DNA of 64,000 bases from Arcticibacter tournemirensis (lineage in GTDB: Bacteria; Bacteroidota; Bacteroidia; Sphingobacteriales; Sphingobacteriaceae). Below the pieces are notes generated by a model, which was not told where the DNA came from, made no database searches, and worked only from the letters and a program-made list of their open reading frames with translations. Shown here one piece after another: positions 45,135-63,568 of the stretch. The stretch spans positions 2,914,001 to 2,978,000 of the forward strand of contig NZ_VFPL01000001.1 in the NCBI RefSeq assembly GCF_006716645.1, in the 5' to 3' direction. A program made the translations under genes and the position numbers. Positions within the stretch are counted from its first letter, which is position 1; each line of letters opens with the position of its first letter.

Positions 45135-45262
45135 ATCCTGGAATAGCTATACAGGTTAATGAATAAATCCTGAATTAATTATACACTATGGTTTGTTATT
45201 CCTGATTGGATTATACACTGCAATTTGGTAATCCTGATTGAACTATACAAGGGCAAGTTCCT
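45135..45262 (+). repeat. Four 32-bp-spaced direct repeats at the IS left end
   Basis: A bipartite motif, (A/T)TCCTG, about seven bases, TATACA, occurs at 45135, 45167, 45199 and 45231, each exactly 32 bases apart. The last copy overlaps the stop codon of the transposase OrfB gene. Copies two and three match at 23 of 32 positions. Confidence 0.75.
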
Positions 45263-46784: not shown

Positions 46785-47747
46785 ATGAACCTTATGAAAT
46801 TATCCAGTCATTTCCTCGTTTTGGCCCTGTTTCTAGCCGGTATTGTAACTTCATGCAGTGAGTTTATAGAACGGTCGATAGAAGATAAGAAAGTGTTTTT
46901 AAATGCTCCGGCAGACAGCGCAGAAAGCGGTAAATACCTTCAGTCTTTCTGGTGGGAGCCGGTGGACGATGCTCTTTCGTACAGGCTTCAGATTGTAAGT
47001 CCATCTTTCAACCAGGCTCAACAGCTGATACTTGATTCGGTAATTAAAGATAACAAGTTTAGTTTTACGCTTGAACCAGGCGAATACCAGTGGAGAGTGC
47101 GGGGAGAGAATGGCAGCAGTCAGACTTTTTATACCACGCGCACCTTTTTTATTTATGAAACCGACCTTAGTAAACAACAGGTCCAGCTGAAAGGCCCTCC
47201 AAACGGAGTAATAACGAATCAGCGAAACTTTATTACCTCGTGGTACAGCATGTACAGTGCAGCAGGTTATCTTCTGCAGGTCGACAGTACTGCCGGAAAT
47301 TTCACGGACGAGCCGTCCCTTTTTGTAAATACGATTGTTGCCAATACGGAGTACGCCGTTACGGCGACTTCCGACAAGACCTACAGCTGGCGTGTCAAGG
47401 CAAAAAATGACACATCGGAATCAAAATGGTCGGCCGTATACAGGTTTACATTCGATGGCACGGCACCTGGAAAGGTAGTGCTAGGCTCTCCGGCGAATGG
47501 AAGCGGAGTGAGCAAGCCCGTAACCCTGCAATGGAATGTCCTCGCCGATGCGAAGAAATACCTGCTATATATATTGAAAAGCGATTCAACAGCATACAAT
47601 TCAAGCTACCCTCTTACTCTCACAACAAACAGTTATTCTTTCAATGGCGGCGAAACTAACGAGAAAATACTCTGGAAGGTAAAGGCTGTTGATGCAGCGG
47701 GCAATATCGGTGCAGATAGTGAGGTGAGGAATTTTACCGTACAATAG
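46785..47747 (+). CDS. Lipoprotein with fibronectin-III-like repeats
   Basis: A 320-residue lipoprotein (Cys at about residue 24, VTSCSEF) with three Ig/FN3-like beta domains, each opening with a pattern such as LNAPADSAESGKYLQSFWWE, LKGPPNGVITNQRNFITSWY and LGSPANGSGVSKPVTLQWN and carrying an internal Y-L-L or Y-R-L strand. It probably lies at the outer membrane, exposing binding modules. It heads the operon of secretion/pseudopilus genes, starting seven bases before the next gene, so it may serve as a docking or scaffold component. The IS element ends only about 50 bases upstream. Confidence 0.7.
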   Translation: MNLMKLSSHFLVLALFLAGIVTSCSEFIERSIEDKKVFLNAPADSAESGKYLQSFWWEPVDDALSYRLQIVSPSFNQAQQLILDSVIKDNKFSFTLEPGEYQWRVRGENGSSQTFYTTRTFFIYETDLSKQQVQLKGPPNGVITNQRNFITSWYSMYSAAGYLLQVDSTAGNFTDEPSLFVNTIVANTEYAVTATSDKTYSWRVKAKNDTSESKWSAVYRFTFDGTAPGKVVLGSPANGSGVSKPVTLQWNVLADAKKYLLYILKSDSTAYNSSYPLTLTTNSYSFNGGETNEKILWKVKAVDAAGNIGADSEVRNFTVQ

Positions 47748-47753
47748 GAGCTG

Positions 47754-48251
47754 ATGAAGAATAAACGGACAACCTACATACTGATCATTTCTGTTGTGGC
47801 AGTATGGGGGATTATCTTTTACAGGATTTTCACCGCTACCCAGGCGGCGGAGCCGGTAAGCTTCAATCTTCCCGCTTCTAAAGCCTCGTACGAATCGTTG
47901 TATGATTATCAGATGAAGGATACGTTTACACTGGCCCTGAATTACCGCGACCCCTTTCTTGGCGGCGAACCTCAGTCAGAGGTTCCGGTAACATCGGTGC
48001 CGCGGGAGCCTGCTGGTTTCGTAATGAATGCTATTGCCGCTCCTCCGCCCGTTAACTGGGAAATAATTCGTTATACCGGTTATATTATGAATCCTAATAT
48101 TAAAAGGGCAGTGGCGATTATGAATATTAATGGTAAAGAATATATGCTGAGCGAAGGACAAAAAGCCGATGGCGTGACGCTTGTTAAAAGTTACCGCGAT
48201 TCAGTGAAGATCTCTTATCGGAGTAAGACTAAATTTATCAGAATACAATGA
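47754..48251 (+). CDS. GspC/PilP-like inner-membrane connector
   Basis: A 165-residue protein with one N-terminal membrane helix (YILIISVVAVWGIIFYRIF), a linker containing YRDPFLGGE, and a C-terminal beta domain (WEIIRYTGYIMNPNIKRAVA, INGKEYMLSEGQ, DSVKISYRSKTKFIRI). The order matches the homology-region domain of GspC and PilP, which connects the inner-membrane assembly platform to the secretin. No known Bacteroidota gene name is certain. It overlaps the next gene by four bases (ATGA). Confidence 0.65.
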   Translation: MKNKRTTYILIISVVAVWGIIFYRIFTATQAAEPVSFNLPASKASYESLYDYQMKDTFTLALNYRDPFLGGEPQSEVPVTSVPREPAGFVMNAIAAPPPVNWEIIRYTGYIMNPNIKRAVAIMNINGKEYMLSEGQKADGVTLVKSYRDSVKISYRSKTKFIRIQ

Positions 48252-48874
48252 GAACGTTATACCTTTCCTTTATCCTGTTATGCGTGTGTGCTAAGGCGAA
48301 TGCCCAATCTTACTATAAAGAATTGACAACAGACAGGGTAACAATCAATAAACCCGACGAGATCATTACTGCTTATACAAAACCGGCCAAAGGAGAGGTA
48401 ACAGCTGAGCCGGAAAGGGAATATGTATGGTATAGCGCGGGTCGCATCCACAACACCCAGGGTGGCTATAGCGGGAAGCTTCTCAACGGAGGGTATAGTT
48501 CGCAATATCCGGGCAAAAATCTGAAAGAGCAGGGAGAATACTCAAACGGACTGAAAAATGGCGAGTGGCGGTCGTGGTATCAAAACGGAAAACTGAAAGA
48601 GATTAGCATCTGGTGCAACGGAGTAAAACATGGCAGGTTCAGCGAGTTCGACGAGAATGGGAATTTGCTGAAAAGCGGCAGCTATCGGAACGGACTGCTG
48701 CATGGAGATGTCGCCTCTTTTAATGGGAAAGACAGCAGTACAGTTGCCTATTACAAAAATGGTAAGCCGGCGGTAAAGAAAAAGCTTAACATATCTGCTA
48801 AGAAGATGGTGCCGGGCTTTCTGAAAAAGAAGCAGAAGGCAAAAAAAGAAGGGGAGCCGGATAATAAAAACTAA
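48248..48874 (+). CDS. MORN/YwqK-type repeat protein in secretion operon
   Basis: A 208-residue secreted protein (signal ends NAQSY) with three or more repeats of a ~23-residue MORN-like unit: GEYSNGLKNGEWRSWYQNG, IWCNGVKHGRFSEFDENG and GSYRNGLLHGDVASFNGK. YwqK-like antitoxins and outer-membrane accessory proteins have this repeat. The C-terminal tail is Lys-rich (KKKQKAKKEGEP). It is translationally coupled to both neighbours (ATGA before, TAA then ATG after), so it belongs to the filament/secretion module. Confidence 0.7.
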   Translation: MRTLYLSFILLCVCAKANAQSYYKELTTDRVTINKPDEIITAYTKPAKGEVTAEPEREYVWYSAGRIHNTQGGYSGKLLNGGYSSQYPGKNLKEQGEYSNGLKNGEWRSWYQNGKLKEISIWCNGVKHGRFSEFDENGNLLKSGSYRNGLLHGDVASFNGKDSSTVAYYKNGKPAVKKKLNISAKKMVPGFLKKKQKAKKEGEPDNKN

Positions 48875-50107
48875 ATGCTTAAAGCATCTGCCCTTTACAT
48901 GGTAATAATAATTGCTTTGGTGATCGCTGTTTTTTCGGCTTCGCTTATTGCTACCGCTTACTTCTACCGCCTGGAGTACCAGAAAAATATGCGCTTTGGT
49001 CGCTTGCAGCTTAACCTCAACTCCGCTGCATCCATTTTATTGTCGTCTGCTTACGTGAGTACAGAGGAACAAAGGCTCGACCTTTTTGGTGAACAAACCG
49101 ACAGTGTGGTGCTGAAAAAAGACCGATGGGGGCTTTTCGCTTTTGGCACTGCGAAAGCATTCACATTGAATGATACGCTGAAAAAAGCATTTCTGATTGC
49201 AGAGGATACGGAAAAAGACCAGACTGCCGTTTACCTGAGCGACGAGGACCGGCCCTTGTCCGTTAGTGGTAATACCCGCATCACCGGAGACGTGCAGATC
49301 CCCAAGGCAGGGATTAAACAAGCCTATGTAGAAGGCAAGCCTTATGCCGGAAAGGAACTTGTATATGGCAGCATTAAGAACAGCACGAGGACACTCCCTC
49401 AACTTAATCAATCAATGCTCGACGAAATTGAAAAGTATTTAGGTGATACTTTAAATAATGAAGTGTATGTTTCTGATTCATTGAGTAATTCTTTTTTCAA
49501 TGAGCCAAAGGTGATCCGGGTAAGCCGGTCCAGTCCGGCGATCACTAACACGGCCATTACCGGCAGAGTCATCATTCTGTGTGATACGGTATTAACTATT
49601 GGCCCGGGCGCACAGCTCAGGGATGTACTTGTCTATGCGCCATCCATTGTTGTAAAAGAAGGATTCAAAGGAAGCGGTCAGCTATTTGCCCGTGACTCGG
49701 TGGTAGTGGAAAAGAAGGCCGATTTTGAATACCCGTCGGCTATCGGAATTCTGAAAAAGGGCGAAGGCGGACAGCCAAAAATTGAACTGGGTAGCGATTG
49801 CCGGTTGGCAGGAATCATCTTTACCCACGAAAAGAAACGAAGTGAATTACAGACCGTCATTAGCCTCGGGAAGAACGCTGTTGTGAAAGGAGAGATCTAC
49901 GCCGCTGGGTTTATAAAAATGGAGAAACCCGTAACAGTGGAAGGAAAAGTTAGCTGCAACCGTTTCATCATTCAAACGCCGTCCACCTTGTATGAGAATT
50001 ACCTCATCGATATTACCATCAACAGAAACAGCAGGAGTGCTTATTATCTCAGTTCGCCTTTGTTTGAGCACAAAGCCCCTAATCAAATCTTAAGATGGCT
50101 AAACTGA
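48875..50107 (+). CDS. GspK/PilX-like minor pseudopilin with bactofilin-like domain
   Basis: A 410-residue protein. The N-terminus (MLKASALYMVIIIALVIAVF) resembles minor pilins of the PilX/GspK kind, without the consensus prepilin cleavage site, then a soluble region to about residue 200. The second half (about 210-380) is a repetitive beta-helix with GRVIILCDTVLTIGPGAQLR and IVVKEGFKGSGQLFARDSVV, reminiscent of polymer-forming bactofilins. No named family recognised. It starts directly after the MORN-type gene and overlaps the next pseudopilin by 13 bases. Confidence 0.6.
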   Translation: MLKASALYMVIIIALVIAVFSASLIATAYFYRLEYQKNMRFGRLQLNLNSAASILLSSAYVSTEEQRLDLFGEQTDSVVLKKDRWGLFAFGTAKAFTLNDTLKKAFLIAEDTEKDQTAVYLSDEDRPLSVSGNTRITGDVQIPKAGIKQAYVEGKPYAGKELVYGSIKNSTRTLPQLNQSMLDEIEKYLGDTLNNEVYVSDSLSNSFFNEPKVIRVSRSSPAITNTAITGRVIILCDTVLTIGPGAQLRDVLVYAPSIVVKEGFKGSGQLFARDSVVVEKKADFEYPSAIGILKKGEGGQPKIELGSDCRLAGIIFTHEKKRSELQTVISLGKNAVVKGEIYAAGFIKMEKPVTVEGKVSCNRFIIQTPSTLYENYLIDITINRNSRSAYYLSSPLFEHKAPNQILRWLN

Positions 50108-50457
50108 AAGACAGAAAACTTGCTGCTTCAACTTTAATTGAAGTTCTGATCGCCATGGTGATTATTGTCGCCGTTTTTGGAATGGCAATGGGCATCTATA
50201 CCAATGTAACGCAATCCGGCTATTCCATCAGTACTACGCAATCTCAGCAGCAAATGCAGACGATCATCGGCGAGAGTATCAGCAACCGCGACTGGCAGGA
50301 CCAGGAGGTGATAGAAGACAGCATCCGGTACCGGAAAACCGTAAGCGCCTGGCCGGGCTACGACGATCTTGTGCTAATCGAAGTGCGGGCAAATCAGAAT
50401 GGAAAAGAGATGGGGAGATTAAGGCAAGTCGTCAGGAGGGAGGTGAAAGATGAATAA
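50095..50457 (+). CDS. Pseudopilin with type IV prepilin signal
   Basis: A 120-residue minor pilin-like protein. The leader ends in AA followed by STLIEVLIAMVIIVAVF: hydrophobic helix with Glu at +5, the hallmark of type IV prepilins; the residue at -1 is Ala instead of the usual Gly. The body (about 35-120) is small, consistent with GspI/GspJ-like tip components. It overlaps neighbours on both sides (13 and 8 bases). Cleavage and methylation would need a PilD-type peptidase, not encoded in this window. Confidence 0.78.
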   Translation: MAKLKDRKLAASTLIEVLIAMVIIVAVFGMAMGIYTNVTQSGYSISTTQSQQQMQTIIGESISNRDWQDQEVIEDSIRYRKTVSAWPGYDDLVLIEVRANQNGKEMGRLRQVVRREVKDE

Positions 50458-50929
50458 AGGCAGCGTGCCCGCCTTCACTATCCTCGAGATGACGATCGCC
50501 ATGCTGCTCGCAGGTATTACAATAGGCATCGCTTATACTGCCTATACCGTGGTCGGCAGATCGTACAGCGAGTACGACCGTAAGAATAAGAAGGTGGCAG
50601 AATTCGTACTGCTGAACAAACTTTTGAAAAAAGATATCGCCGAGTCAGAAAAAGCCCTCCGGCTTGGCGAAGGCATCAGTTTGGAAGGTGAGCGGGGCAC
50701 TATCCAGTATGTTTTTAGTCCCGCTTTCATTACCCGCAGCCAGCACGAACTGCAAACCGATACGTTCTATGTAAAGAACAGCAATCTGCTTATGACATTT
50801 GAGGACAAACCTACAGAAGAGGGAAAACTGGCCGATAAAATCAGTTTTACCGCCGAGCTGGAAGGAAGCGCTATCTCCATGGCCTTTACCAAACAGTATA
50901 GCTCTGAAGACCTATTTGAGCAAGATTAA
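50450..50929 (+). CDS. Pseudopilin with type IV prepilin signal
   Basis: A 159-residue minor pilin-like protein with a short leader and the N-methylation helix FTILEMTIAMLLAGITIGIA (Glu at +5). As in the previous gene, Ala precedes the predicted cleavage site. The rest, about 120 residues, could be a GspJ-like fold. It ends 71 bases before the GspF gene. Confidence 0.8.
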   Translation: MNKGSVPAFTILEMTIAMLLAGITIGIAYTAYTVVGRSYSEYDRKNKKVAEFVLLNKLLKKDIAESEKALRLGEGISLEGERGTIQYVFSPAFITRSQHELQTDTFYVKNSNLLMTFEDKPTEEGKLADKISFTAELEGSAISMAFTKQYSSEDLFEQD

Positions 50930-51000
50930 ATATATCATTTTATGTTCGTTTCATTTTTATCTATATTGCTTTCATAAACGGAACCCGAGCCAGCAGTCCA

Positions 51001-52155
51001 ATGCCACAGATAGACCTTTCGCAATATAAAGCCAAAAAGCCAGAGAAAAAGACCTCTACGGGCGGAAAAGAGGGGCCCTTTAGCTGGGCGGAATTGCTGA
51101 ATAAAGATATCTCATTCGGAAAGGCAAAGGTTGGTGACCGCAAGAAGGAGGCCTTTTATGTAGAGCTGAGTACACTTCTCCTTTCGGGTATCGATTTGAA
51201 GACGGCGCTCGATCTGATCCTCGTAGATCAGGACAAGGCAAAAGATAAGGCACTTTTTGAAGGGATCAAAGAAAATGTTTTGCATGGCAGCTCCCTTTCC
51301 GACGCCTTAAAAAGTACCGCCATGTTTACGGACTACGAATATTACAGCGTCCGCATCGGCGAAGAAACGGGAAGGATCGGTGAGGTACTCACAGACCTTG
51401 CTAAGTTTTTTAAGAACAGGATCTCGCAAAGAAGGAAGATCATCAGCGCCGTTACCTACCCTTTGATCGTGCTGATGACCTCGCTGGGAGCAGTATTCTT
51501 CATGCTTAAGTTTGTGGTTCCGATGTTTGCCGATGTATTTCAGCGCTTCGGCGGGCGGCTTCCCTGGGTCACTTCGATGATCATTCGCTTTTCGGCCTTT
51601 ACAGATAAATATTTTATAGTATTTCTGACTGTCGTTATCGCCCTTGCCGTCTTTATATTCGCGAGCAGGGGTAAGCTATGGTTCAGAAGGGCCGTGTCGG
51701 CGGCGGTGCTTAAGATACCACTGGCCGGCGATATTGTCCGTAAGATCTATCTCGCCCGTTTTGCCAATACCATGCGGCTTCTGGTAAGCACCGATACGCC
51801 CTTACTGCGTTCTATCGCCCTGGTAAGGCAGATGATTGGCTTTTATCCTCTGGAAGCCACCCTTGCAGAAGTGGAAAAATCCATTCTCAAGGGTGAATCA
51901 TTACACCAGAGTCTGTCGAAGTTTAGCTTCTACCCGCCGAAGCTTGTTCAGCTGATTAAGGTAGGAGAAGAAGTGAACCGTTTAGGGTATTTCTTCGGCA
52001 AAATCTCCGACCAGTACACCGAAGAAGTAGAATATAAAACAGGCACCATCAGCAGCCTGCTCGAACCCCTTATTATCATCTTTCTTGGCCTGGTTGTCGG
52101 CCTCATTCTGATAGCGATGTACCTGCCGATGTTCCAGATGAGTAATAGTTTTTAA
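51001..52155 (+). CDS. Type II secretion/type IV pilus inner-membrane platform protein GspF/PilC-like
   Basis: A 384-residue polytopic platform protein. The two T2SSF repeats are clear: residues about 60-180 (FYVELSTLLLSGIDLKTALD with IGEETGRIGEVL) and 250-370 (FANTMRLLVSTDTPLLRSIA with VGEEVNRLGYFF), separated by the first membrane helix (LIVLMTSLGAVFFMLKFVV) and ended by two more. The family anchors the assembly ATPase GspE/PilB. No GspE, GspD secretin or major pseudopilin gene is present in the window, so these must lie elsewhere if the system works. Confidence 0.93.
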   Translation: MPQIDLSQYKAKKPEKKTSTGGKEGPFSWAELLNKDISFGKAKVGDRKKEAFYVELSTLLLSGIDLKTALDLILVDQDKAKDKALFEGIKENVLHGSSLSDALKSTAMFTDYEYYSVRIGEETGRIGEVLTDLAKFFKNRISQRRKIISAVTYPLIVLMTSLGAVFFMLKFVVPMFADVFQRFGGRLPWVTSMIIRFSAFTDKYFIVFLTVVIALAVFIFASRGKLWFRRAVSAAVLKIPLAGDIVRKIYLARFANTMRLLVSTDTPLLRSIALVRQMIGFYPLEATLAEVEKSILKGESLHQSLSKFSFYPPKLVQLIKVGEEVNRLGYFFGKISDQYTEEVEYKTGTISSLLEPLIIIFLGLVVGLILIAMYLPMFQMSNSF

Positions 52156-52500
52156 GAAGGTTGTGCTTTCAAAAACTTTTTTCTTTGATTCATCACTGAA
52201 AAGTACCCGTTCGTGTAATTCTTGTTTTTTTATAAATATTTTCTTCAGAGATTTATTGAAGAAATAAGAAAAGACCTTAACGAATATTTACGAAGCTTTG
52301 GATTTAAGATATTTCCTACGCAAATGTAAAGAGTGCCAATTGTAACCTTGCTCCTTATTTCATTAAGTATAAAAACAAGACATTATCAAGTAAGCATGTA
52401 TTTTCACACACCTGATCTGTCGCAAGCCGCCTGCAGGCACATTGCTAAGCCTTTAAATAGCTTTCTAACCGGTAATACAATCAAAAAAAATAATAGTACT
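52156..52500. other. Intergenic region between GspF and the first RHS gene
   Basis: About 345 A/T-rich bases with no supported gene. TTTCTTCA and TGAAGAAA (52240-52264) form a short inverted repeat that may end the secretion operon. A long in-frame extension upstream of 52501 lacks codon character. Confidence 0.4.
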
Positions 52501-55500
52501 ATGAAAAAGATGCTATACGTCGTATTGATGATCACATCAATAGTGAACACCTATGCCCAAACCACTATCCCGCTGGATGTACCGCGTGTTGTCCCGATTT
52601 CGCCCACTGCCACAGCGATGGAAAAATATCTGTCGTACCCGGTAGATCATTGTACCGGAATTCCCAACATTACCATTCCGTTATATGAGATTGTAGCCGG
52701 AGAAGTTACCATCCCTGTAAGCCTGTCGTATCATGCCTCGGGTCTTAAACCCAAAGACGGGAGCACTCTGGCTGGCACAGGATGGACTTTGAATCTGGAA
52801 CCATCGGTTACAAGGCAGATTTGTGGTGTTGATGACGATTCCTATTATGGGTGGTTCAATGATCCACATAAGCAAGATTATTCAACTGATGATCAGGGTA
52901 TAATAGGATATTATAATCAACTCGTAGATAACATAAGGGATACTCAGCCCGATAAGATTAGTTATAAACTGCCCAATGGAGGCGGAAGTGGTTATTTCAT
53001 AGAACCATTTCGCTTTTTGTCAATCCCGCGCAATAATGATAAAGTTGAATATAATCATTCTGAGGGCGTGCGTATTACTGATGCTAATGGGGTTGTATAT
53101 AATTTTAATGGCGAAAAAGAGACCGCAGGAGGATACACGACCCGATGGCTATGTAAATCGATCTGGTCTCCAAATAATTCGTATAAAGCATTGGTTAATT
53201 TCTCGTACTATATGCTCGACCATAGGACCCCTCCAAGTCATTATTATAATCTCGATAATAAGGTTGTTGTTACGCTTCAGGACTGGTATGATAAGCAGAA
53301 TATATTCACATTACAAACTACAAATCAAAATCGTCATTACTCAATTAACTATTCTCTTCAACCCGGTCCCGGTATTCAGGATGCGACATTAACTCCAATT
53401 TCAGAATATCAGGCGCAGGTGTATTATCCGAGGATCAACAGGTTTATAGATGATAATATGATCATCTCGCGACTGGAGCAAGTCAGCTTTCTCGGAAATA
53501 AGTTGTCTGTTTTTTACAAAGTTGTTGGAAGTGATCCGAACAATACAGAAGTGTTGGATAGAATAGAAGTAGTAAATAAGGATGGTATGAAAGTAAGGAA
53601 TATTGTATTCTACATAACGCCTTATAATTCAGGGACAAAACTCACTAAGTTGGATTCAGTAATTATATCTGCGCCGGGAGTGGAGTCGCGCAAATATGCT
53701 TTTGATTATTACGATCCCTCATCTGTCCCTTCAACTTATACAGTTGCCGTTGATCATTGGGGTTTTTGTAATGGATCTGAAAGCCGGAGCGAGCCTACGG
53801 TCCCAAGTTTCAAGAGAGCATTGACTCTTCTGAGTGTCAACGGAGGTATTCCGGGAGCTGTGATGCTGAATTTCCAGGGTGCAAACCGCGAACCAAATCA
53901 TGAATGGACAAAAACCGGCGTTTTGACTAATATAACCGATCCGCAGGGCATCACCACTAAGTTTATTTATGAAGGGAATTTTGGCGCTTTCCGTAATAAC
54001 AGTAATTACTATGCTAAAGATTATTTACACCCGGTAGGTGGCCTGAGGATAAAACGTATCGAAACAATCGATTCTAAAACGCATCATGCGATCTATAAAA
54101 ACTATACATATGGTCTAACCAGGCACGATGTGCCAAATTTTCAACCCGTATGGGGCGGAGGGGCGATAAAACACATCGTAACCATTCGGGATTATACCTC
54201 ATCGGTGAAATATAGAAAAACTGCTTACGAATACAGTTATTTAACCACCTACAATTCTATGCCAGAGTCAAACATAAGTTTCAATGGAGGCAGTGCGGTG
54301 ATGTATAACGTCGTGATCGAAGAGACTACGAATTGGACAGATAATGCTAAAACGAAAACCAAATATACATATAATGTTAAAAGCCATGATTTTGAAGATA
54401 TACTCAATTGGGATAGCTCAGACCCTGGCGGTTCTGTCCAACAGTTTTTGAGTGAGCAGCCGGAGACGATTATGCAGCAGCTTACCCGGAAAATGCCGGG
54501 TCATCGCCGGGAACCATCAGATGATTACGTCAACTTTTATGCAATGACAAATCAGTTTTATGGAGCCCCGGTCACTACCGAACATTTTAGAAATAACAAA
54601 CTGGCTTCAAGTACTAAATACGGATATAAAAGCGAGCGGGTTTGGTGGACGAATATAGAATTGGACCTGCCTCATAGGCGTATCATAGGCGATACAGAAG
54701 GTTTAAGAGCCAATGATGTTTTTACACTCAGAAACTACTACCCAGCTGGACAATCGGATAATGTACAGACTACATATTACCTGGATACGGAGAGCTACAG
54801 AGCCCTTGATAAGGAGATCACAAGTCAATATTATGATATCGAAGGCGGGCAGGATGTAATTACAACGGAGAGGCAATACAACTATCATTTCGATCTTACA
54901 GACCCAGGATCATCACTAAAACCCCGGCGGATTGAAACGATAAACAGCGATAAAACGGTAATTATCGATAGTCTTGATTATCTGACTGGTTATCCGGCAA
55001 TGTTGTCCCGCCATAAACGCATAGAAAATAATAACTGGAAGGAAAGCAGGATATTGTTTAAACCGAACAGTAATCTTCCGGAAAAGATACAATTCAGAAC
55101 TAATCGGATGCCATCATTCAGGGATGAAGTAAAATACAATGAATACGACTCGTATGGCAATGTGATAGAGATTATGGGAAAGGACGGCAAGCCAGTAACT
55201 TTTGTATGGGGATATCAACGGCAGTTTCCGGTGGCCAAAATAGAGAATGCGACTGCTCAACAGGTATACAGTGGCTCTGGTATTTTTCAGGGATCTGCCG
55301 ATTATCCTCAGCCACCGTTAGAGATGTGGTCAAGAATAGAACAACTCAGAACGGAACTACCTAATGCCCAGATAACAAAATATGAATATAAACCACTACA
55401 GGGTGTTGTGGCGATCACTGATCCCAATAATATAACAACCCGCTTTGAATATGACCATTACGGCAGGCTTACGGACAAGTATTTTCTGGATGCGAAATCG

Positions 55501-55557
55501 CCGTCAGATATCAGAAAAGTTATGCTTCAAAAGTATATATATAAGTTCGGAGAGTAA
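52501..55557 (+). CDS. Large secreted RHS/YD-repeat-type protein without toxin tip
   Basis: A 1018-residue secreted protein; the start at 52501 gives a clean signal peptide (VVLMITSIVNTYAQ). The N-terminal region (PVDHCTGIPNITIPLYEIVA and TIPVSLSYHASGLKPKDGST) is the common start of large Bacteroidota RHS-associated proteins, with some resemblance to SpvB/TcB-like shells. YD-type repeats appear at the end (NNITTRFEYDHYGRLTDKYF). No RHS core motif or variable tip follows. It precedes the toxin-bearing RHS gene by 42 bases, so the two may form one shell or share a transcript. Confidence 0.8.
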   Translation: MKKMLYVVLMITSIVNTYAQTTIPLDVPRVVPISPTATAMEKYLSYPVDHCTGIPNITIPLYEIVAGEVTIPVSLSYHASGLKPKDGSTLAGTGWTLNLEPSVTRQICGVDDDSYYGWFNDPHKQDYSTDDQGIIGYYNQLVDNIRDTQPDKISYKLPNGGGSGYFIEPFRFLSIPRNNDKVEYNHSEGVRITDANGVVYNFNGEKETAGGYTTRWLCKSIWSPNNSYKALVNFSYYMLDHRTPPSHYYNLDNKVVVTLQDWYDKQNIFTLQTTNQNRHYSINYSLQPGPGIQDATLTPISEYQAQVYYPRINRFIDDNMIISRLEQVSFLGNKLSVFYKVVGSDPNNTEVLDRIEVVNKDGMKVRNIVFYITPYNSGTKLTKLDSVIISAPGVESRKYAFDYYDPSSVPSTYTVAVDHWGFCNGSESRSEPTVPSFKRALTLLSVNGGIPGAVMLNFQGANREPNHEWTKTGVLTNITDPQGITTKFIYEGNFGAFRNNSNYYAKDYLHPVGGLRIKRIETIDSKTHHAIYKNYTYGLTRHDVPNFQPVWGGGAIKHIVTIRDYTSSVKYRKTAYEYSYLTTYNSMPESNISFNGGSAVMYNVVIEETTNWTDNAKTKTKYTYNVKSHDFEDILNWDSSDPGGSVQQFLSEQPETIMQQLTRKMPGHRREPSDDYVNFYAMTNQFYGAPVTTEHFRNNKLASSTKYGYKSERVWWTNIELDLPHRRIIGDTEGLRANDVFTLRNYYPAGQSDNVQTTYYLDTESYRALDKEITSQYYDIEGGQDVITTERQYNYHFDLTDPGSSLKPRRIETINSDKTVIIDSLDYLTGYPAMLSRHKRIENNNWKESRILFKPNSNLPEKIQFRTNRMPSFRDEVKYNEYDSYGNVIEIMGKDGKPVTFVWGYQRQFPVAKIENATAQQVYSGSGIFQGSADYPQPPLEMWSRIEQLRTELPNAQITKYEYKPLQGVVAITDPNNITTRFEYDHYGRLTDKYFLDAKSPSDIRKVMLQKYIYKFGE

Positions 55558-55599
55558 GCCGGACAAGCTATAAGTCAATAATTCATTTTAAAGATAATC

Positions 55600-58500
55600 A
55601 TGAAAAAATATATGTATGCGCTTGTGCTGAGTTTATTTGCGTCCGGAACAATTGCCCAGGGTTACCGGCAAAGAATGTTGTCGGCGATCGATCTGGGGTC
55701 TTACTCCGATCTCTTCACCTGTAACAGCACAAAGAATACCGGGGATTATACAAACGACTACACTCACCTTGAGTATAATTACTCGACGGGCGAATATTAT
55801 AACAATGATCCGCCAGCAAGGGATATCTTTTATAGACTGACAATTACTACAAAGTCGATGGACCTGTATATTAGCAATAACGGAAGTTCATTTACGGCAG
55901 GCTCGGTTATCTATTTGCTTGACGCTACAGGAAAAGAGTTATGGTACTATAGATCTTATAGTCAGAATGACAGGAACTCCTTTGTATATCCTGTCCAGCC
56001 AGGGACATATTACATTGTTACTGAAGCTATCACTTACGAGGGAAGCACGAACGATATAGGGCTAATTAAAACCAGCGTTGAAGGTAAAGCGAGGAGAACA
56101 GGAGAGGATTTTTTCTATCCGGCTGGCCTGGGTACGTTCAGTTCAAATTTCACTGCCTCACATACAATTGGTCCTGATGACATCAGACAGTATAAATGTG
56201 ACTTTAAAGATGGTTCCGAATTAGATGCCTATAGCGACAGGCGCGATCTTGTACACCAGTTCACCATTACTAAACCCATGGATATAAGTCTCGACAATAT
56301 CGGATCGGTGAGGATTGAATCAATGAGTACGGCTTACATGAAGATTATTTCAGCATTGGGGGATACTATCAGGGAACAATCAATTGACAATTTTTACTAT
56401 TCTAACCGAAAGTTCAATTACGAACTTGCTGCAGGAACTTATACGGTCTATTCCAAGTTCACAATGGGGCAGTATAGCGACGCCAAATACGTGCTGAATC
56501 TTACAGGCAAGGACCTATTACCCGGTTCATCACCATTAAGTCCGATTGATATAGGCAGTAAACAAGCCAGCTTTACCTATAGTCAAACCCAAAATACCAG
56601 TTTGTTCAGCAGAAGCAAGGTTGTTACGAAGTCGGGAAATGAAGTTTTTTATAAATTGACATTGACGGTCCCGATGGAAATAACAGTGGATAACTGTGGT
56701 TCAGCGGTCGCGGACACTTATCTACAAGTGCAATCCGAGGATAAGAATCAATACTATACCAACGATACGTATACCGGCAGCGGGGCTTGCGCGAATACGC
56801 AAAATGCATACATTAAAATTCTGGCACTGTTACCCGGGACTTACTATATCGTCTCTGATGGCGCACAGAACGGTAATATAACTACTACTATTAAAGGAAC
56901 TACCCTTGGCGCTATGGGCGACAAACTGATCACAGCCATTGATGCAGGAACGCACGAAGTTGGATTTAATTTTACAGATACGAAGAATACGGCTTCAGAA
57001 TTCACGAATCAATTTGCAGGGAAACTTACGAACGACGTATACTATAAATTTACTCTTACAGACTCGATGGATATCACGGTGAGCCACTGCGGATCTGCCA
57101 CCCCAGATACCTATATGAGCATTCTGAATGCAGGTGGTACAGTGGTGTACACTAACGACAACTATACAGGAGAGGGAAAGTGTACAAATACCGGAAACGC
57201 AGTGATAAAAGTCAGCAAAATGCCTAAAGGGGTTTACTATGTTGTTTCTGAAGGAAATTCACAGAACGGCCTTATCACGACTACCATTGAAGGAAGTAGC
57301 GCCTACGGTAATATCCATACCACCAAAGGGCAGCCACACGTCATCACTCTTACTCCCACTGTAGAAGCGGGTAATCTTGAAATCCTTGATGCGAAGCAAT
57401 TACACCGAAATGTTCAGTATTTTGATTATTTCGGGTATCCAACGGTGAACATAGAGCTTGATGTAGCTCCGTTGGGCGGCGACCGGGTAACACTTCAGGA
57501 AACGGATGGCCTTTTCAGGAAGTCAAAAGGCTGGTTGCCTATAGCTAAAAATACAAATGGAGGAGTATTCTTGACCCCTGAAGAGATCAAACAGGCGGCT
57601 AAAATAACGACGACCTATGGAATCGATCAGCGTCCCTACAGCCAGACGATCTATGACGGATCTCCTCTGGACCTCGTTGTGGAGCAATTCGGACCGGGTA
57701 ATGACTGGTTTAGTAATGGCCGTTCCGTGAAAACCGACCGGTGGGCGAACTTCGGTACATCTGGCATATTATCTTGTGCCAGGTATACGTTGGGTGGAAC
57801 CTATACTGCTCCGACGCTCATAAAGACCGGTTATTATGCCGACTACGAACTATATGTAACCAGAACAACAGACGAGGACAATCACGTGGGTTATGAATTT
57901 AAAGACAAGGCGGGGCGTATGCTCCTTTCGCGCAGGATGAACGGAGCGACACCGCATGATACGTATTACGTTTATGACGACTATGGCAACCTGACTTTCG
58001 TTATACCTCCGCTTGCTTCGGATATACTGACGGCCACCAATACCGCATGGGATGAAGCGACATCAGCCGTCAAGAACTACGCCTATATGTACAAATACGA
58101 TGGCTATAACCGCTGCATTTTTAAAAAACTGCCAGGTGCCGAACCCGTTTATTCCATCTACGATAAAGCCGACCGCCTGATCTATACCCAGGATGGCGAA
58201 CAAAGGGCCAAGCCGACACCCGAATGGACGTTTACCATACCGGACGCATTCGGGCGTGCAGCATTAAGCGGCAGGTGCGTCAACAGCCTGAACTACCTGG
58301 CAAACCCTCTTGGCGATATACTGGTAAAAGCGGAATACACAGGGGGAACGAACGCATCCATGGGGTATACCGTTTCAGGCGTAACCCTGGCAAATCCGAT
58401 AGTCTTATCAGCTAACTATTACGATAACTATGCATTTCTGAACACCAATGGCATAAACGATGGGGCTTATCTTCCTGAAGCCGGCTTCGGCACACCGTAT

Positions 58501-60546
58501 CCTGGTTCAAAAGGTTTGCTGACCGGCACCCTGATCGCACAGCTGGAACCCGGTGGAGCGGTCAGCAGCGACTATCTCTATTCGGTTAAGTATTACGATA
58601 ATCGTGGCCGGGTCATACAGGTAGCTGAAAAAGTGACTAGCGGGACAAGCCGGTTGAACACTAACTATGATTTCGCAGGTAATCCCTTGCTGGTGAAGGA
58701 GAGGCAGTCTGTCCATGGCCTGCAGACGGATATTCAAACTGCCTATACCTATGATCACGCAGGACGGCGCTTGTCTGAAAAAGTAAGCGTGAATGGCGTT
58801 GAACAGGCAGCCATCACCTATACCCACGATGAGGTGGGTCGTCTGGCAAGTCAGAAATATGCAAAAGGCACGTGGTCCACTACCGAAACGATGGGCTATA
58901 ACATCCGGAGCTGGCTGACGGAAAAAGCAAGTCCCTATTTCTCCATGCAGCTCCGTTACAATAATGTCCTATTGCCTGCTTCCAAAAAGAATTACGGAGG
59001 GGGAATCAGTGAGTGGACATGGCAGCACAGCGGTGGCACTAATAATATGTATAGTCTGCAATACGACGATGCAGACAGGCTTACCGGTGCGCGACAGTAT
59101 GTAGCCAGTGGTTCTAGCTGGGCTAGTGCGCCAAGTCATTACAGTGAAAACGGGATCAGCTATGACAAAAACGGCAACATCCTGACCCTGCAGCGATCGG
59201 CCGGAGGAAACACGATCGACAACCTGACCTACAACTATGACGGTAACCGGTTGTCGGCGTTGACTGAATCGGTCGCCTCGCCGGGTGCTGCGGATATCCT
59301 AATACAGGGAAGCAGCCCTCAGGGAACGTATAATTACAACGCCAACGGCAACATGGTATACGACAGCCGGAAAAACTCGACATACGGCTATAATATCCTT
59401 AACTTAACCGACATGGTGAAGCAGGGCCAAACCGTAAAAGCGACCTATAAGTGGTCCGCTACTGGGGCGAAGCTCAGCGTACGCGATGGAACAGGAACCA
59501 ACGGGTTAGACTATGCAGGTTCAGTAGTATATGCAAAGAGCGCCTCGGGCATGACTGTAGATGCTATTCACTTCGATCATGGAGTGATCAGGAAGCAAGC
59601 CGACGGGTATATGGTAAACTATTTCCTCAATGACCATCTGGGAAGTACCCGCGTGGTTGTCGATGGTAATGGAACATTACTTGAGAGAAACGATTACTAT
59701 CCTTTTGGAGCCAGACACAAGAGGAACGATTATCTTGCCAGTGACAATAGGTACAAGTATAACGGCAAGGAGGAGCAGGTGGTAGGAGATGTTGGGTTCC
59801 TGGATTACGGAGCAAGAATGTACGATGCGACGATTGGGAGGTGGAATGTGGTGGATCCCTTGGCTGAGAAAAGTAGAAGATATTCCTTTTACGTCTATGG
59901 TAATGATAATCCTATTCGGTTTATCGACCCTGATGGAAAGGCAGTAATCAATATAAATGGAGGCGTGACATATACCGGGGAAGATGCAAAACTAGCATTC
60001 GCTGCCTATAAAAGAGCTAATGAAAACGGAGATTTTAAAATACATTTTGTGAAAGAAATGGACACTCCCAATATTTATCGACATACCTTAAATTCATTTA
60101 GATTAGGCAAACCTCAAGTATTGCATTATGATTCAGATAAAAAAAGAAGGACAAAGCGTCGTTATCAAGCTACCCAAAGTTATTTACCCAAACCGGGTAT
60201 GCAGAGGGATGAATATCCCTACGCATCGACATTTGAAGGAGGGGCTGGCGCCAATGTCGCTTATGTCCCATCTATCGAGAACAGCAGGCAAGGACAGTCC
60301 TTAGCAAATTTATATAGTGACATGAATCAAGGGGAGGCATTTCTAGTACTCCCTGTACCCAAAGGCAAAGAGCCGGATGCCTCTCCCGATCCAGTACCGG
60401 TTCCTTTTCCCGTTCCAGTGCTCAGAGCAACACCTAAAGCAGTGCCATCTTTATTGAATAGGATTTTAATGCGTGTCTTGCCCATGCCAATTCTGAATTT
60501 GCCTGAATATCAGCAAGTAAATCAAGATAATAACAATGAAGGATAG
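55600..60546 (+). CDS. RHS polymorphic toxin with C-terminal NucA/NucB-type DNase
   Basis: A 1648-residue secreted RHS protein. A signal peptide (FASGTIAQG) precedes three or four repeated beta-sandwich domains (about 30-575; for example DVYYKFTLTDSMDITVSHCG and VFYKLTLTVPMEITVDNCG). A Bacteroidota RHS N-region (IEILDAKQ-like segments, about 590-700) and YD repeats (about 770-1340) follow. The RHS core (about 1344-1443) has NDHLGSTRVVVDGNG, NDYYPFGARHKRNDYLASDN, RYKYNGKE, LDYGARMYDATIGRWNVVD and RFIDPDGKAV. The variable tip (about 1446-1648) contains RDEYPYASTFEGGAGANV (Asp and Glu at 1537-1538) and YVPSIENSRQGQSLANLYS, the NucA/NucB deoxyribonuclease signature. The tip ends with a Pro-rich tail. 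Confidence 0.88.
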   Translation: MKKYMYALVLSLFASGTIAQGYRQRMLSAIDLGSYSDLFTCNSTKNTGDYTNDYTHLEYNYSTGEYYNNDPPARDIFYRLTITTKSMDLYISNNGSSFTAGSVIYLLDATGKELWYYRSYSQNDRNSFVYPVQPGTYYIVTEAITYEGSTNDIGLIKTSVEGKARRTGEDFFYPAGLGTFSSNFTASHTIGPDDIRQYKCDFKDGSELDAYSDRRDLVHQFTITKPMDISLDNIGSVRIESMSTAYMKIISALGDTIREQSIDNFYYSNRKFNYELAAGTYTVYSKFTMGQYSDAKYVLNLTGKDLLPGSSPLSPIDIGSKQASFTYSQTQNTSLFSRSKVVTKSGNEVFYKLTLTVPMEITVDNCGSAVADTYLQVQSEDKNQYYTNDTYTGSGACANTQNAYIKILALLPGTYYIVSDGAQNGNITTTIKGTTLGAMGDKLITAIDAGTHEVGFNFTDTKNTASEFTNQFAGKLTNDVYYKFTLTDSMDITVSHCGSATPDTYMSILNAGGTVVYTNDNYTGEGKCTNTGNAVIKVSKMPKGVYYVVSEGNSQNGLITTTIEGSSAYGNIHTTKGQPHVITLTPTVEAGNLEILDAKQLHRNVQYFDYFGYPTVNIELDVAPLGGDRVTLQETDGLFRKSKGWLPIAKNTNGGVFLTPEEIKQAAKITTTYGIDQRPYSQTIYDGSPLDLVVEQFGPGNDWFSNGRSVKTDRWANFGTSGILSCARYTLGGTYTAPTLIKTGYYADYELYVTRTTDEDNHVGYEFKDKAGRMLLSRRMNGATPHDTYYVYDDYGNLTFVIPPLASDILTATNTAWDEATSAVKNYAYMYKYDGYNRCIFKKLPGAEPVYSIYDKADRLIYTQDGEQRAKPTPEWTFTIPDAFGRAALSGRCVNSLNYLANPLGDILVKAEYTGGTNASMGYTVSGVTLANPIVLSANYYDNYAFLNTNGINDGAYLPEAGFGTPYPGSKGLLTGTLIAQLEPGGAVSSDYLYSVKYYDNRGRVIQVAEKVTSGTSRLNTNYDFAGNPLLVKERQSVHGLQTDIQTAYTYDHAGRRLSEKVSVNGVEQAAITYTHDEVGRLASQKYAKGTWSTTETMGYNIRSWLTEKASPYFSMQLRYNNVLLPASKKNYGGGISEWTWQHSGGTNNMYSLQYDDADRLTGARQYVASGSSWASAPSHYSENGISYDKNGNILTLQRSAGGNTIDNLTYNYDGNRLSALTESVASPGAADILIQGSSPQGTYNYNANGNMVYDSRKNSTYGYNILNLTDMVKQGQTVKATYKWSATGAKLSVRDGTGTNGLDYAGSVVYAKSASGMTVDAIHFDHGVIRKQADGYMVNYFLNDHLGSTRVVVDGNGTLLERNDYYPFGARHKRNDYLASDNRYKYNGKEEQVVGDVGFLDYGARMYDATIGRWNVVDPLAEKSRRYSFYVYGNDNPIRFIDPDGKAVININGGVTYTGEDAKLAFAAYKRANENGDFKIHFVKEMDTPNIYRHTLNSFRLGKPQVLHYDSDKKRRTKRRYQATQSYLPKPGMQRDEYPYASTFEGGAGANVAYVPSIENSRQGQSLANLYSDMNQGEAFLVLPVPKGKEPDASPDPVPVPFPVPVLRATPKAVPSLLNRILMRVLPMPILNLPEYQQVNQDNNNEG

Positions 60547-60548
60547 AC

Positions 60549-61097
60549 GTGATATCACATTTGAAAATTCCGGTTTTACACTTGTTAATTCTTTTTATTA
60601 ATAACTGTCATAATACTAAAATGAGTAATAATATTAAATACAAACTTGATTTTTATACAGAATACAACCAGTTTTATATCGTTGATAAAAACGTCGGACC
60701 AGATTTAGAATCATCCGGCCTTTGGACGGACATTTCAGTATTTGAACGATTGGGGATCGCGGAGGGAACCGTAGGAGTTTACACAGAGTGTTATGGACCG
60801 GTTAAAGGAGACTTGGAGTTATTAAAGGAATCTAGAAAGGAGGTTGATTATAAAAAATATGATCATATTGTAGAGTGTGGATTGAACATCTCTTCGGGAT
60901 TCTTACAGATATTAGATTGCCCCACATCTAGAGTGCAATTAGAATTGAAAGTACCATCTGGGAAATACGCCGTGCGTGTTTATTCTTTGAATTTAGGCAG
61001 TGTGAAAGGGGATGAAGGAGAAGATTTTTATAAGATAGAAATGTGGCCTGAAAAAAAGATTATGAATCCTAAAGTCCTTAAGCAATATAGGCCTTAG
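60549..61097 (+). CDS. ComJ-like immunity protein for the RHS-NucA toxin
   Basis: A 182-residue protein starting (GTG) two bases after the toxin stop; AAGGA sits five bases upstream. YNQFYIVDKN and GLWTDISVFERLGIAEG, then VPSGKYAVRVYSL and EDFYKIEMWP, match the pattern I recall for ComJ (YHQFTVFQK, WTDEAIEKGYAAADG, LPKGDYQLTCWTVPA), the inhibitor of the competence nuclease NucA in Bacillus subtilis. The N-terminus (HLLILFINNCHNTK) looks like a signal with a possible lipid Cys at residue 20; ATG at 60621 would remove it. The match to ComJ is from memory and partial, but its position behind a NucA-type tip supports it strongly. Confidence 0.75.
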   Translation: MISHLKIPVLHLLILFINNCHNTKMSNNIKYKLDFYTEYNQFYIVDKNVGPDLESSGLWTDISVFERLGIAEGTVGVYTECYGPVKGDLELLKESRKEVDYKKYDHIVECGLNISSGFLQILDCPTSRVQLELKVPSGKYAVRVYSLNLGSVKGDEGEDFYKIEMWPEKKIMNPKVLKQYRP

Positions 61098-61316: not shown

Positions 61317-61907
61317 ATGAAGATGTTGAAAAACGTTAATGGGGAATTAGTAATAAACCTTAATCACAATATACTGTATTTGATTTATGTATTGCTGTTC
61401 GGTATGCTTTTATCGTGCAGTGGGCCGAGCCCAGTTTATGTAGTTTCAAAAGAGGACAGCCTTAATATTAAAAAGAATACTGACCAATCCGGAGTGGTAT
61501 TGATGCCTCCTAAAGTTAAATATGCTGTCTATACATTTCTCGTCGATTCTACTGATAATGTTTATTTTTATTCTTTTCCTGAAGAAAAGCCAAGTGTAGG
61601 AGTTTCTGATGATGAAGAACCGGAGTTTATAGGATTGATGCCTAATCATGTTTTTTGTATTCCCAATGGATCAGAAAGGATTTTTTTTGAAACAAATGTA
61701 TTATTTCAAAAAGGTTCAAGGCGGATTAAAGATGTAATATTAGCTTCTTTTAAAGATACAATTAGTATTGACTTTCTTAAATATTTAAAATCCATATCAT
61801 CTGATAAATCTAACAGGGTTTCTTTTGCGATTAGGTTGGCACTTCCCGAAGAAAGAGATGTTCTAAAACATAAAATCAACGGAATATACTACGAACCTAG
61901 GAAGTAA
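61317..61907 (+). CDS. Lipoprotein, candidate orphan immunity protein
   Basis: A 196-residue predicted lipoprotein (hydrophobic LIYVLLFGMLLSCSGPSP, Cys at residue 34). Beta-rich mid-section (VKYAVYTFLVDSTDNVYFYS) and a C-terminal helix-strand tail; no family recognised. It lies behind the RHS remnant at 61221-61277 and ahead of the orphan RHS core at 62007, the place where immunity genes of displaced tips occur. Function as immunity is inferred from position only. Confidence 0.55.
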   Translation: MKMLKNVNGELVINLNHNILYLIYVLLFGMLLSCSGPSPVYVVSKEDSLNIKKNTDQSGVVLMPPKVKYAVYTFLVDSTDNVYFYSFPEEKPSVGVSDDEEPEFIGLMPNHVFCIPNGSERIFFETNVLFQKGSRRIKDVILASFKDTISIDFLKYLKSISSDKSNRVSFAIRLALPEERDVLKHKINGIYYEPRK

Positions 61908-63125: not shown

Positions 63126-63127
63126 TC

Positions 63128-63568
63128 ATGCGGAAAGCGTCTATATTTATATCATCTTCATTGATGCTTGTGTTGATCTCTTGTGGTTCTGAAAAAATAA
63201 TAATTTCACATTGGTATGGATTTTCAGACTCTCCATCGCGAAGTATTCAATTGGCTTTTTCATCAGATTCAACCTTCAAACTCATAAATGCGGTTTCTGG
63301 AAATTTAGCCTTTTCTGTATCGGGGCAGTGGAGAAAAATTGATCACCGGACGTTTATACTTATTAATCCCAATGCAAAAGTTCATGGAGCAGCAGGTCCG
63401 CAAGCATATAAAACAGAGGAGAATATAGATGAAATTCTTGCTAGTACAGATCATCGTTATATATTCCCCAGCATAGGGATTGATACGATCGTCTTTTCAG
63501 AGCATTATAAAAGATTTGATTTAAAGGGATACCCGTTTGTTATAGGTAGAAGAATTAAATCCAATTGA
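63128..63568 (+). CDS. Lipoprotein, candidate immunity for the HExxH tip
   Basis: A 146-residue lipoprotein (signal SSLMLVLISCGSEK, Cys at residue 19) starting three bases after the tip's stop codon; an in-frame ATG at 63110 inside the toxin gene is less likely. The body is beta-rich (SIQLAFSSDSTFKLINAVSG, FSVSGQWRKIDHRTFILI) with no recognised family. Immediate coupling to the HExxH tip is the typical toxin-immunity order. Confidence 0.6.
   Translation: MRKASIFISSSLMLVLISCGSEKIIISHWYGFSDSPSRSIQLAFSSDSTFKLINAVSGNLAFSVSGQWRKIDHRTFILINPNAKVHGAAGPQAYKTEENIDEILASTDHRYIFPSIGIDTIVFSEHYKRFDLKGYPFVIGRRIKSN

What the first reader, a model, noticed from the sequence alone, without database searches (positions are those of the whole stretch)
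46785..60546. Candidate secretion module: partial T2SS/type IV-filament operon next to RHS effectors
Seven tightly overlapped genes encode GspC/PilP-like, GspK/PilX-like, two pseudopilins, GspF, a MORN-type protein and an FN3 lipoprotein. Two large RHS proteins with signal peptides follow on the same strand. The toxin-bearing RHS protein would cross the outer membrane by an unknown route; a pseudopilus could provide it. The genes are seen; the link is inference from co-localisation.
Basis: partly seen in the sequence, partly recalled or inferred. Interest (0 to 1): 0.78.

Follow-up and report, generated by a model that had tools for sequence, protein, structure and literature searches.

The report
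Secretion machine paired with RHS toxins
A pilus-like secretion machine of Bacteroidota is encoded beside large toxin proteins of the RHS type in most of the loci examined, so it may be the missing exit route for those toxins, though export itself has not been tested.

Summary
The seven-gene operon and two RHS genes are confirmed, but the machine is not partial: gspG, prepilin peptidase, gspE, gspD, a PilN-domain (GspL-like) and a GspM-like gene start 3 kb past the window, so the RHS island lies between two halves of one locus. It is the Cytophaga-type "T2SS" of Bacteroidota, which a published phylogeny places apart from true T2SS.

In 201 family genomes DUF6443-RHS occurs in 45 of 47 with this gspE and 27 of 154 without. 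RHS-type genes lie within 20 kb of gspE in 40 of 45 family loci, 8 of 9 in a second family and 14 of 17 in other classes. These gspE genes form one clade; of 69 other named loci one has an RHS gene. RHS tails are polymorphic, several of antibacterial types. A T6SS marker is nearly absent. A 28-base motif occurs exactly twice in the genome: before rhsA and before gspG.

Best reading: this filament machine exports Sec-dependent RHS toxins. Against: RHS pairs also occur in genomes without it, nearly all T9SS-positive, and many RHS copies lie elsewhere. Export, shell and targets are inferred.

The parts
46785..47747 (+). FN3-type lipoprotein, first gene of machine module 1
   Evidence: lipobox seen; sub-threshold Ig-like hits; same profile found in 33 of 71 loci
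47754..48251 (+). GspC/PilP-like inner-membrane protein (weakly supported name)
   Evidence: TIGR01713 E 0.028; profile in 46 of 71 loci
48248..48874 (+). MORN-repeat protein with signal peptide
   Evidence: PF07661 7.7e-10; profile in 35 of 71 loci
48875..50107 (+). 410-aa GspK/PilX-like protein (name inferred; sub-threshold bactofilin-like match)
   Evidence: profile in 43 of 71 loci
50095..50457 (+). minor pseudopilin (GspI/H-like)
   Evidence: N_methyl E 0.0009, below cut-off
50450..50929 (+). minor pseudopilin (GspJ-like)
   Evidence: N_methyl E 0.013, below cut-off
51001..52155 (+). gspF inner-membrane platform; last gene of module 1
   Evidence: PF00482 1.1e-41; TIGR02120 255 bits, cut-off 424
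52187..52218 (+). 32-base upstream element shared with the gspG upstream region (L003:4903-4934)
   Evidence: 28-base core only at these two places in the genome at up to 3 mismatches
52504..55557 (+). rhsA: toxin-less RHS partner with signal peptide (ORF opens at 52333; the ATG at 52504 fits the signal peptide)
   Evidence: RHS_repeat 2e-9; homologues upstream of 48 of 64 DUF6443 ORFs
55600..60546 (+). rhsB: DUF6443, RHS core and C-terminal NucA/NucB-type DNase
60549..61097 (+). candidate immunity gene (by position only)
   Evidence: no family hit
61317..61907 (+). small lipoprotein, candidate immunity gene (by position only)
   Evidence: lipobox seen
62052..63125 (+). orphan RHS core plus a different tail: displaced toxin cassette
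   Evidence: own CORE profile; no Pfam hit
63110..63568 (+). small lipoprotein, candidate immunity gene of the orphan cassette (by position only)
   Evidence: lipobox seen

Best explanation
The locus encodes a complete Bacteroidota-type filament secretion machine (so-called T2SS of the Cytophaga type) together with its likely cargo, a two-protein RHS polymorphic toxin. RhsA and RhsB enter the periplasm by Sec (signal peptides seen). There they probably fold into one RHS shell holding the C-terminal toxin (inferred from RhsB's match to Tc-toxin and teneurin-like proteins and from proteins in other classes that join both parts). The pseudopilus then pushes them through the secretin (inferred). 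Outside, the toxin acts on neighbouring bacteria and small neighbouring genes give immunity (inferred). Shown: gene content, linkage, co-occurrence, polymorphic tails, a shared upstream element in this genome. Not shown: export, shell, target. Genomes with RHS pairs but no such machine would need another route, perhaps T9SS.
For: Co-occurrence: DUF6443 in 45 of 47 gspE+ and 27 of 154 gspE- family genomes, genus-stratified p 5e-12; in 395 phylum genomes 27 of 32 strict gspE+ and 38 of 363 others (threshold chosen after seeing the scores). Linkage: RHS-type gene within 20 kb of gspE in 40 of 45, 8 of 9 and 14 of 17 loci; 34 of 45 family loci with DUF6443 where uniform placement predicts 1.2; 51 of 64 DUF6443 ORFs on the strand of the nearest machine gene. 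One clade: 80 Bacteroidota gspE and L031 group together (support 0.998); L031 is the one of 70 non-Bacteroidota loci that matches the RHS core profile. Signal peptides seen; Q of an 'AQ' invariant in 19 chosen RhsA N-termini. VipB (T6SS) in 1 of 201 family genomes, not this one. Among 24 SprA-negative family genomes DUF6443 is in 3 of 3 gspE+ and 2 of 21 gspE-, the latter two in frames of 317 and 327 aa. Shared upstream element.
Against: RHS pairs exist in genomes without the machine: 47 of 52 gspE-negative DUF6443+ genomes have an RhsA match, and genus g27 has 3-10 copies per genome. Roughly 138 of 188 DUF6443 copies in gspE+ family genomes lie away from the machine. 9 of 71 loci have no RHS-type gene within 20 kb. 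T9SS marker is in 177 of 201 family genomes and 54 of 54 others tested, so T9SS stays possible. The shared element may be a duplicated promoter region left by insertion and was not found in the other 70 loci. Published function of the C. hutchinsonii system is cellulose use (PMC5553014, passages).
Confidence: 0.66

Rival explanations
1. Hot-spot or hitch-hiking: the locus is a place where RHS cassettes accumulate by recombination, with no functional tie to the machine.
For: Decayed RHS pieces, orphan cassettes and varying arrangements at these loci; the repeated upstream element could be an insertion footprint.
Against: A hot-spot does not explain why genomes with the machine carry about 2.9 further copies elsewhere against 0.23 copies per genome without it, nor why the linkage recurs in other classes and not in 68 of 69 other named gspE loci.
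Confidence: 0.13
2. T9SS exports the RHS proteins; the filament machine does something else and is linked for shared control or ecology.
For: T9SS marker in 25 of 27 gspE-negative DUF6443+ family genomes and in all 25 such genomes of other families tested. TANFOR polymorphic toxins of Bacteroidetes were proposed as T9SS cargo from linkage (PMC7073777, passages).
Against: 3 of 3 SprA-negative gspE+ family genomes have DUF6443, with full-length frames seen in two of them, G089 and G180. No T9SS C-terminal signal could coexist with a C-terminal toxin (recalled reasoning); the Por_Secre_tail hit in the third RHS protein is internal and sub-threshold.
Confidence: 0.1
3. The machine is a DNA-uptake or adhesion pilus, and the RHS toxins kill neighbours whose DNA or nutrients it helps to take; coupled ecology, not export.
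For: Published phylogeny clusters the Bacteroidetes system with T4aP (PMC6668835, passages); pilus models score close to T2SS models here.
Against: Only one T2SSE-family ATPase over cut-off and so no PilT candidate in the genome; mutants in C. hutchinsonii point to secretion (PMC5553014, passages).
Confidence: 0.07
4. RHS toxins are released by cell lysis and need no exporter.
For: RHS pairs persist in genomes lacking this machine.
Against: Does not explain the linkage or the co-occurrence.
Confidence: 0.04

Closest known systems
Putative T2SS of Cytophaga hutchinsonii, chu_3191-3202 (PMC5553014; passages)
   Same: Same core set and order of D, E, prepilin peptidase, G, F, minor pseudopilins and L/M/C-like genes
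   Different: Rhs is not mentioned in that paper (0 occurrences); described role is cellulose use; there the genes are in one cluster, here the two halves are parted by RHS genes
Proteobacterial type II secretion system
   Same: Secretin, ATPase, platform, pseudopilins, prepilin peptidase, no PilT; two-step export of Sec cargo (recalled)
   Different: No component passes the NCBIfam T2SS cut-offs; published phylogeny puts the Bacteroidetes system apart (PMC6668835)
Rhs effectors of T6SS
   Same: RHS core, variable C-terminal toxin, following small genes
   Different: Signal peptides instead of T6SS adaptor domains; T6SS marker not found in this genome
Tc toxin B-C shells and teneurin-like proteins
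   Same: RhsB matches 9pt5, 9ifo, 6sup, 6h6g, YenC2 in the RHS core region
   Different: Partner RhsA finds no solved structure by sequence; shell not shown (models too poor); no TcA pore gene noted beside it
TANFOR polymorphic toxins of Bacteroidetes (PMC7073777; passages)
   Same: Sec-dependent Bacteroidetes polymorphic toxins, some with DNase tails
   Different: Another N-terminal domain; proposed route is T9SS, from linkage to T9SS cargo
Polymorphic toxin survey listing RHS toxins under 'T2SS' (PMC3482391; passages)
   Same: RHS toxins with signal peptides in Bacteroidetes
   Different: There T2SS means 'Sec (or Type II)'; the held text has no 'secretin' or 'gsp', so the filament machine is not named

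Membership tests
Type II secretion system (proteobacterial sense) | Secretin, ATPase, platform, pseudopilins, prepilin peptidase in one genome locus | tested here: met
   peptidase Peptidase_A24 E 1e-4, just under cut-off
Type II secretion system (proteobacterial sense) | Components score above curated T2SS equivalog cut-offs | tested here: not met
   GspE 496 of 630 bits, GspF 255 of 424, GspD 118 of 351, GspG 37 of 89, GspM 18 of 60, GspC 14 of 102
Type II secretion system (proteobacterial sense) | Phylogenetic place within T2SS | not tested
   No reference T2SS and T4P set was placed in my tree; published work says apart (PMC6668835, passages)
Type II secretion system (proteobacterial sense) | Secretes proteins | not testable with these tools
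   needs deletion and secretome
Bacteroidota-type (Cytophaga) filament secretion machine | Gene set and order D-E-O-G-F with L/M/C-like and minor pseudopilins | tested here: met
Type IVa pilus | Retraction ATPase PilT | tested here: not met
   one PF00437 match over cut-off in the genome
RHS polymorphic toxin | RHS repeats and core with variable C-terminal toxin | tested here: met
   97 tails in 88 clusters
RHS polymorphic toxin | Cognate immunity gene downstream | not tested
   small genes follow; function inferred from position
Tc-type B-C shell | Two RHS subunits forming one closed shell | tested here: inconclusive
   pair and joined forms; RhsB matches Tc proteins; no PDB match for RhsA; models pLDDT 29-30
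T6SS Rhs effector | T6SS in the genome | tested here: not met
   VipB absent here, 1 of 201 in the family; one marker only
T9SS cargo | C-terminal sorting domain | tested here: not met
   C-terminus of rhsB is a NucA/NucB domain; type-B or other signals not tested

The most novel reading that the evidence does not exclude
A dedicated toxin-export class: a type IV filament machine of the Bacteroidota and near relatives, distinct from true T2SS, whose ancestral cargo is a two-part RHS toxin sent across the outer membrane already packed in its shell, with toxin and machine genes under shared control.
Probability: 0.38. Interest if true: 0.92.

Novelty: new variant of a known kind. Interest (0 to 1): 0.8.

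Why it matters
It would join two open problems: what the divergent 'T2SS' of Bacteroidota secretes, and how Sec-dependent RHS toxins leave a cell with two membranes when no T6SS is present (for related teneurin-like toxins a 2026 paper states that no obvious delivery machinery is known; PMC13018210, passages). Both become testable by deleting one gene. It would give this machine a role in competition between bacteria and make its loci a place to look for new toxin and immunity families.

Tried and rejected
My first thought, that the RHS genes are a chance insertion in the machine operon, was dropped after the surveys. General LytTR control of the locus was rejected: LytTR proteins appear in only 6 of 71 loci, and only G041 shares the place beside gspG; the motif at up to 7 mismatches was found in no other of the 71 loci. 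AlphaFold models of RhsA and of RhsB residues 576-1648 had mean pLDDT 29-30, so no fold search was made. RhsA profile against PDB sequences: nothing.

Corrections: one search used 28 of 32 for the phylum table and counted all three T9SS-negative gspE+ genomes as intact; the recount is 27 of 32, and the frame of G095's DUF6443 was not seen, so one search is used.

Weak points of the controls: the 69 named loci outside the clade average 16 kb, shorter than the 34-38 kb of the main set; the named in-clade loci of the same scan (7 of 11 including L031, p 8e-7) are the fairer comparison. Five of the 70 non-Bacteroidota loci are not in the tree (145 tips: 80 Bacteroidota, 65 others). L051, outside the clade, has a YD-repeat protein found by motif but by none of my profiles. 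The uniform null treats copies as independent, though some lie in tandem. I and J pilin labels are loose because those profiles merge. ORFs were called by longest-frame rules. The strict gspE threshold in the phylum survey was set after seeing the scores. Match tables were cut by the tool; genome rows with matches were complete.

Left out before counts: G104 and G175 (family), G220 (second family), G215 and G358 (other classes) were not fetched; by coordinates G104 and G175 do have DUF6443 near gspE. G183 and G192 were left out of the genus-stratified test because their genus was not listed. 27 of 97 tails were not sent to the family scans.
Full report
Observation. The seven ORFs and two RHS genes are present as described. 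Family scans support GspF strongly, MORN clearly and the pilin-like proteins weakly; the GspC and GspK names rest on weak or sub-threshold matches. The operon is not partial. The window is bases 2,914,001-2,978,000 of contig C1 of a 5.66 Mb genome. gspE lies 4 kb after its end, inside a run gspG, prepilin peptidase, gspE, gspD, PilN-domain protein and GspM-like protein (L003:4995-11271). Between gspF and gspG lie rhsA, rhsB, candidate immunity genes, an orphan RHS cassette, a stretch that looks like decayed RHS sequence, and a LytTR gene on the other strand. After the GspM-like gene come a small ORF and a 1,777-aa RHS protein. The genome has four DUF6443 genes; two are in this locus. The nearest named gspE relatives are Mucilaginibacter, Pedobacter and Sphingobacterium, so the family is probably Sphingobacteriaceae.

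What the machine is. Gene set and order match the putative T2SS of Cytophaga hutchinsonii (PMC5553014; passages). No component passes the curated T2SS cut-offs, and pilus models come close or higher: GspE 496 against PilB 481 bits, GspD 118 against PilQ 120, GspG 37 against a PilA model 59. A published phylogeny says that the Bacteroidetes system clusters with T4aP and might be a novel type of secretion system derived independently of T2SS (PMC6668835; passages). The genome has one T2SSE-family ATPase over cut-off, hence no PilT candidate. I call it a Bacteroidota-type filament secretion machine, not a T2SS in the strict sense.

Association by genome. In 201 genomes of the family, gspE (E at most 1e-60) is in 47 and DUF6443 in 72. 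DUF6443 is in 45 of 47 gspE+ and 27 of 154 gspE- genomes (Fisher p 2e-23). Stratified by genus, p is 5e-12; counting only strong matches, 44 of 47 against 17 of 154, stratified p 9e-17 (two genomes of unlisted genus left out of the stratified tests). Copies: 188 in 47 genomes against 35 in 154. In 395 genomes of the phylum, strict gspE (E at most about 1e-95) is in 32, of which 27 have DUF6443, against 38 of 363 others; without this family, 24 of 29.

Linkage. I read DNA around gspE in 45 of 47 family genomes, 9 of 10 of a second family and 17 of 19 of other classes. RHS-type genes (DUF6443, RHS core or RhsA profile) lie within 20 kb of gspE in 40 of 45, 8 of 9 and 14 of 17; DUF6443 itself in 34 of 45, 4 of 9 and 11 of 17. 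In the family, 48 DUF6443 ORFs were seen where uniform placement predicts 1.24, and 34 loci with at least one where it predicts 1.22; over all loci 51 of 64 share the strand of the nearest machine gene. The RHS genes sit between the two modules, after the second, or before the first, in varying arrangements. Loci without: G025, G006, G077, G187, G024 (8-kb contig), G482, G413, G210 and G205, the last with DUF6443 34 kb away.

One clade. Among 80 named gspE loci from one scan, RHS-type genes are near 6 of 10 Bacteroidota loci (one of the misses is a 4-kb contig) and, by profile, 1 of 70 others, L031, a Zixibacteria record. In a tree of 145 gspE proteins, midpoint-rooted, the 80 Bacteroidota tips and L031 form one group, support 0.998; 5 of the 70 others are not in the tree. 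Of the 69 other named loci, none matches the RHS profiles at E 0.1 and one (L051) has a YD-repeat protein by motif. So the RHS habit follows the machine's lineage; the outside loci are shorter.

The toxin. RhsB ends in a NucA/NucB-type DNase. RhsA is a partner without a recognised toxin: a homologue lies upstream, same strand, within 2.5 kb of 48 of 64 DUF6443 ORFs, and in G338 one 2,257-aa protein matches both the RhsA region and DUF6443. In 19 chosen RhsA N-termini the Q of a signal-peptide-like 'AQ' is invariant. 97 RHS tails fall into 88 clusters. Of 70 scanned, 13 Pfam families were matched by one or two tails each: Ntox33, CHAP, Tox-REase-9, DUF4329, Tae4, DUF5675, NucA/NucB, M23, JAB1, M91, colicin E5, PLA2-like and Ntox50. 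Several are types known to act on bacteria (recalled), which suggests use against competitors; most tails have no family.

Other exporters. T6SS: VipB in 1 of 201 family genomes and not here. T9SS: SprA_N in 177 of 201, including this genome, and in all 54 genomes tested outside the family, so T9SS cannot be excluded in general. Among the 24 SprA_N-negative family genomes, all 3 with gspE have DUF6443 and 2 of the 21 without do (p 0.005); those two have frames of only 317 and 327 aa. Frames of 1,133-1,626 aa are seen in G089 and G180; the G095 frame was not seen, but a 1,167-aa RhsA lies beside its machine. Numbers here are small and nearly all from one genus, g17.

Against. RHS pairs are not tied to this machine alone. 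Of 52 gspE-negative genomes with DUF6443, 47 have an RhsA match, often just upstream by coordinates; genus g27 has 3-10 copies per genome. Roughly 138 of 188 copies in gspE+ family genomes lie away from the machine. So either several routes exist or export is less specific than the linkage suggests.

Shared upstream element. A 32-base motif stands before rhsA and before gspG. Its 28-base core occurs nowhere else in the genome at up to 3 mismatches, with none in the reversed control. It holds TTCRT twice, 21 bases apart; such direct repeats are typical of LytTR sites (recalled), and a LytTR gene lies divergent from gspG. Similarity runs a little beyond the motif, so a duplication of the gspG promoter region at insertion is as likely as designed co-control; it was not found in the other 70 loci.

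Prior work. No paper in the library has DUF6443. Searches combining Rhs with type II secretion, polymorphic toxin, Bacteroidetes, T2SS, pseudopilin or type IX secretion showed none in their listings, by title and start of abstract, that reports this linkage; most listed papers were not opened. Two Flavobacterium genome papers that hold both terms do not join them in the passages seen (PMC5524665, PMC5808330). The 2012 polymorphic-toxin survey (PMC3482391) lists 'T2SS' as export route of many RHS toxins but defines it as the 'Sec (or Type II) system', and the held text has no 'secretin' or 'gsp' (passages). Only open-licence papers are held, so others may exist.

Conclusion. The linkage is real, reaches across the phylum and follows one machine lineage. 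The best reading is export of RHS toxins by this machine; export, shell and targets remain inferences.

Noticed in passing
window 45243-46690 (-): Two overlapping ORFs that look like an IS3-type insertion sequence (by eye) stand just upstream of the operon.
   Followed up: no
L003:12142-17475 (+): The RHS protein after the second module carries a teneurin-type NHL domain (PF25021, 1.7e-22); the 2026 survey of teneurin-like proteins names six phyla, Bacteroidota not among them (PMC13018210, passages).
   Followed up: no
L003:3937-4755 (-): LytTR-domain protein (4.8e-17) divergent from gspG; a like gene stands at the same place in G041.
   Followed up: partly
L003:2300-2520: Looks like a decayed fragment of an RHS gene (reading against rhsB).
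   Followed up: no
L051 (Nitrospirae record): A YD-repeat protein cut by the contig end lies near a gspE outside the clade.
   Followed up: partly
L031 (Zixibacteria record), ORF at 18511-19290: The one non-Bacteroidota gspE inside the clade is also the one with an RHS core gene nearby, which hints that the pairing reaches beyond Bacteroidota.
   Followed up: partly
family genomes, genus g17: Most of the 24 family genomes without the SprA_N marker belong to this genus, a natural loss of T9SS useful for separating exporters.
   Followed up: partly
genus g27 (another Bacteroidia family): Six genomes with 3-10 DUF6443 genes each and RhsA matches but no gspE of this type: their exit route is open.
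   Followed up: no
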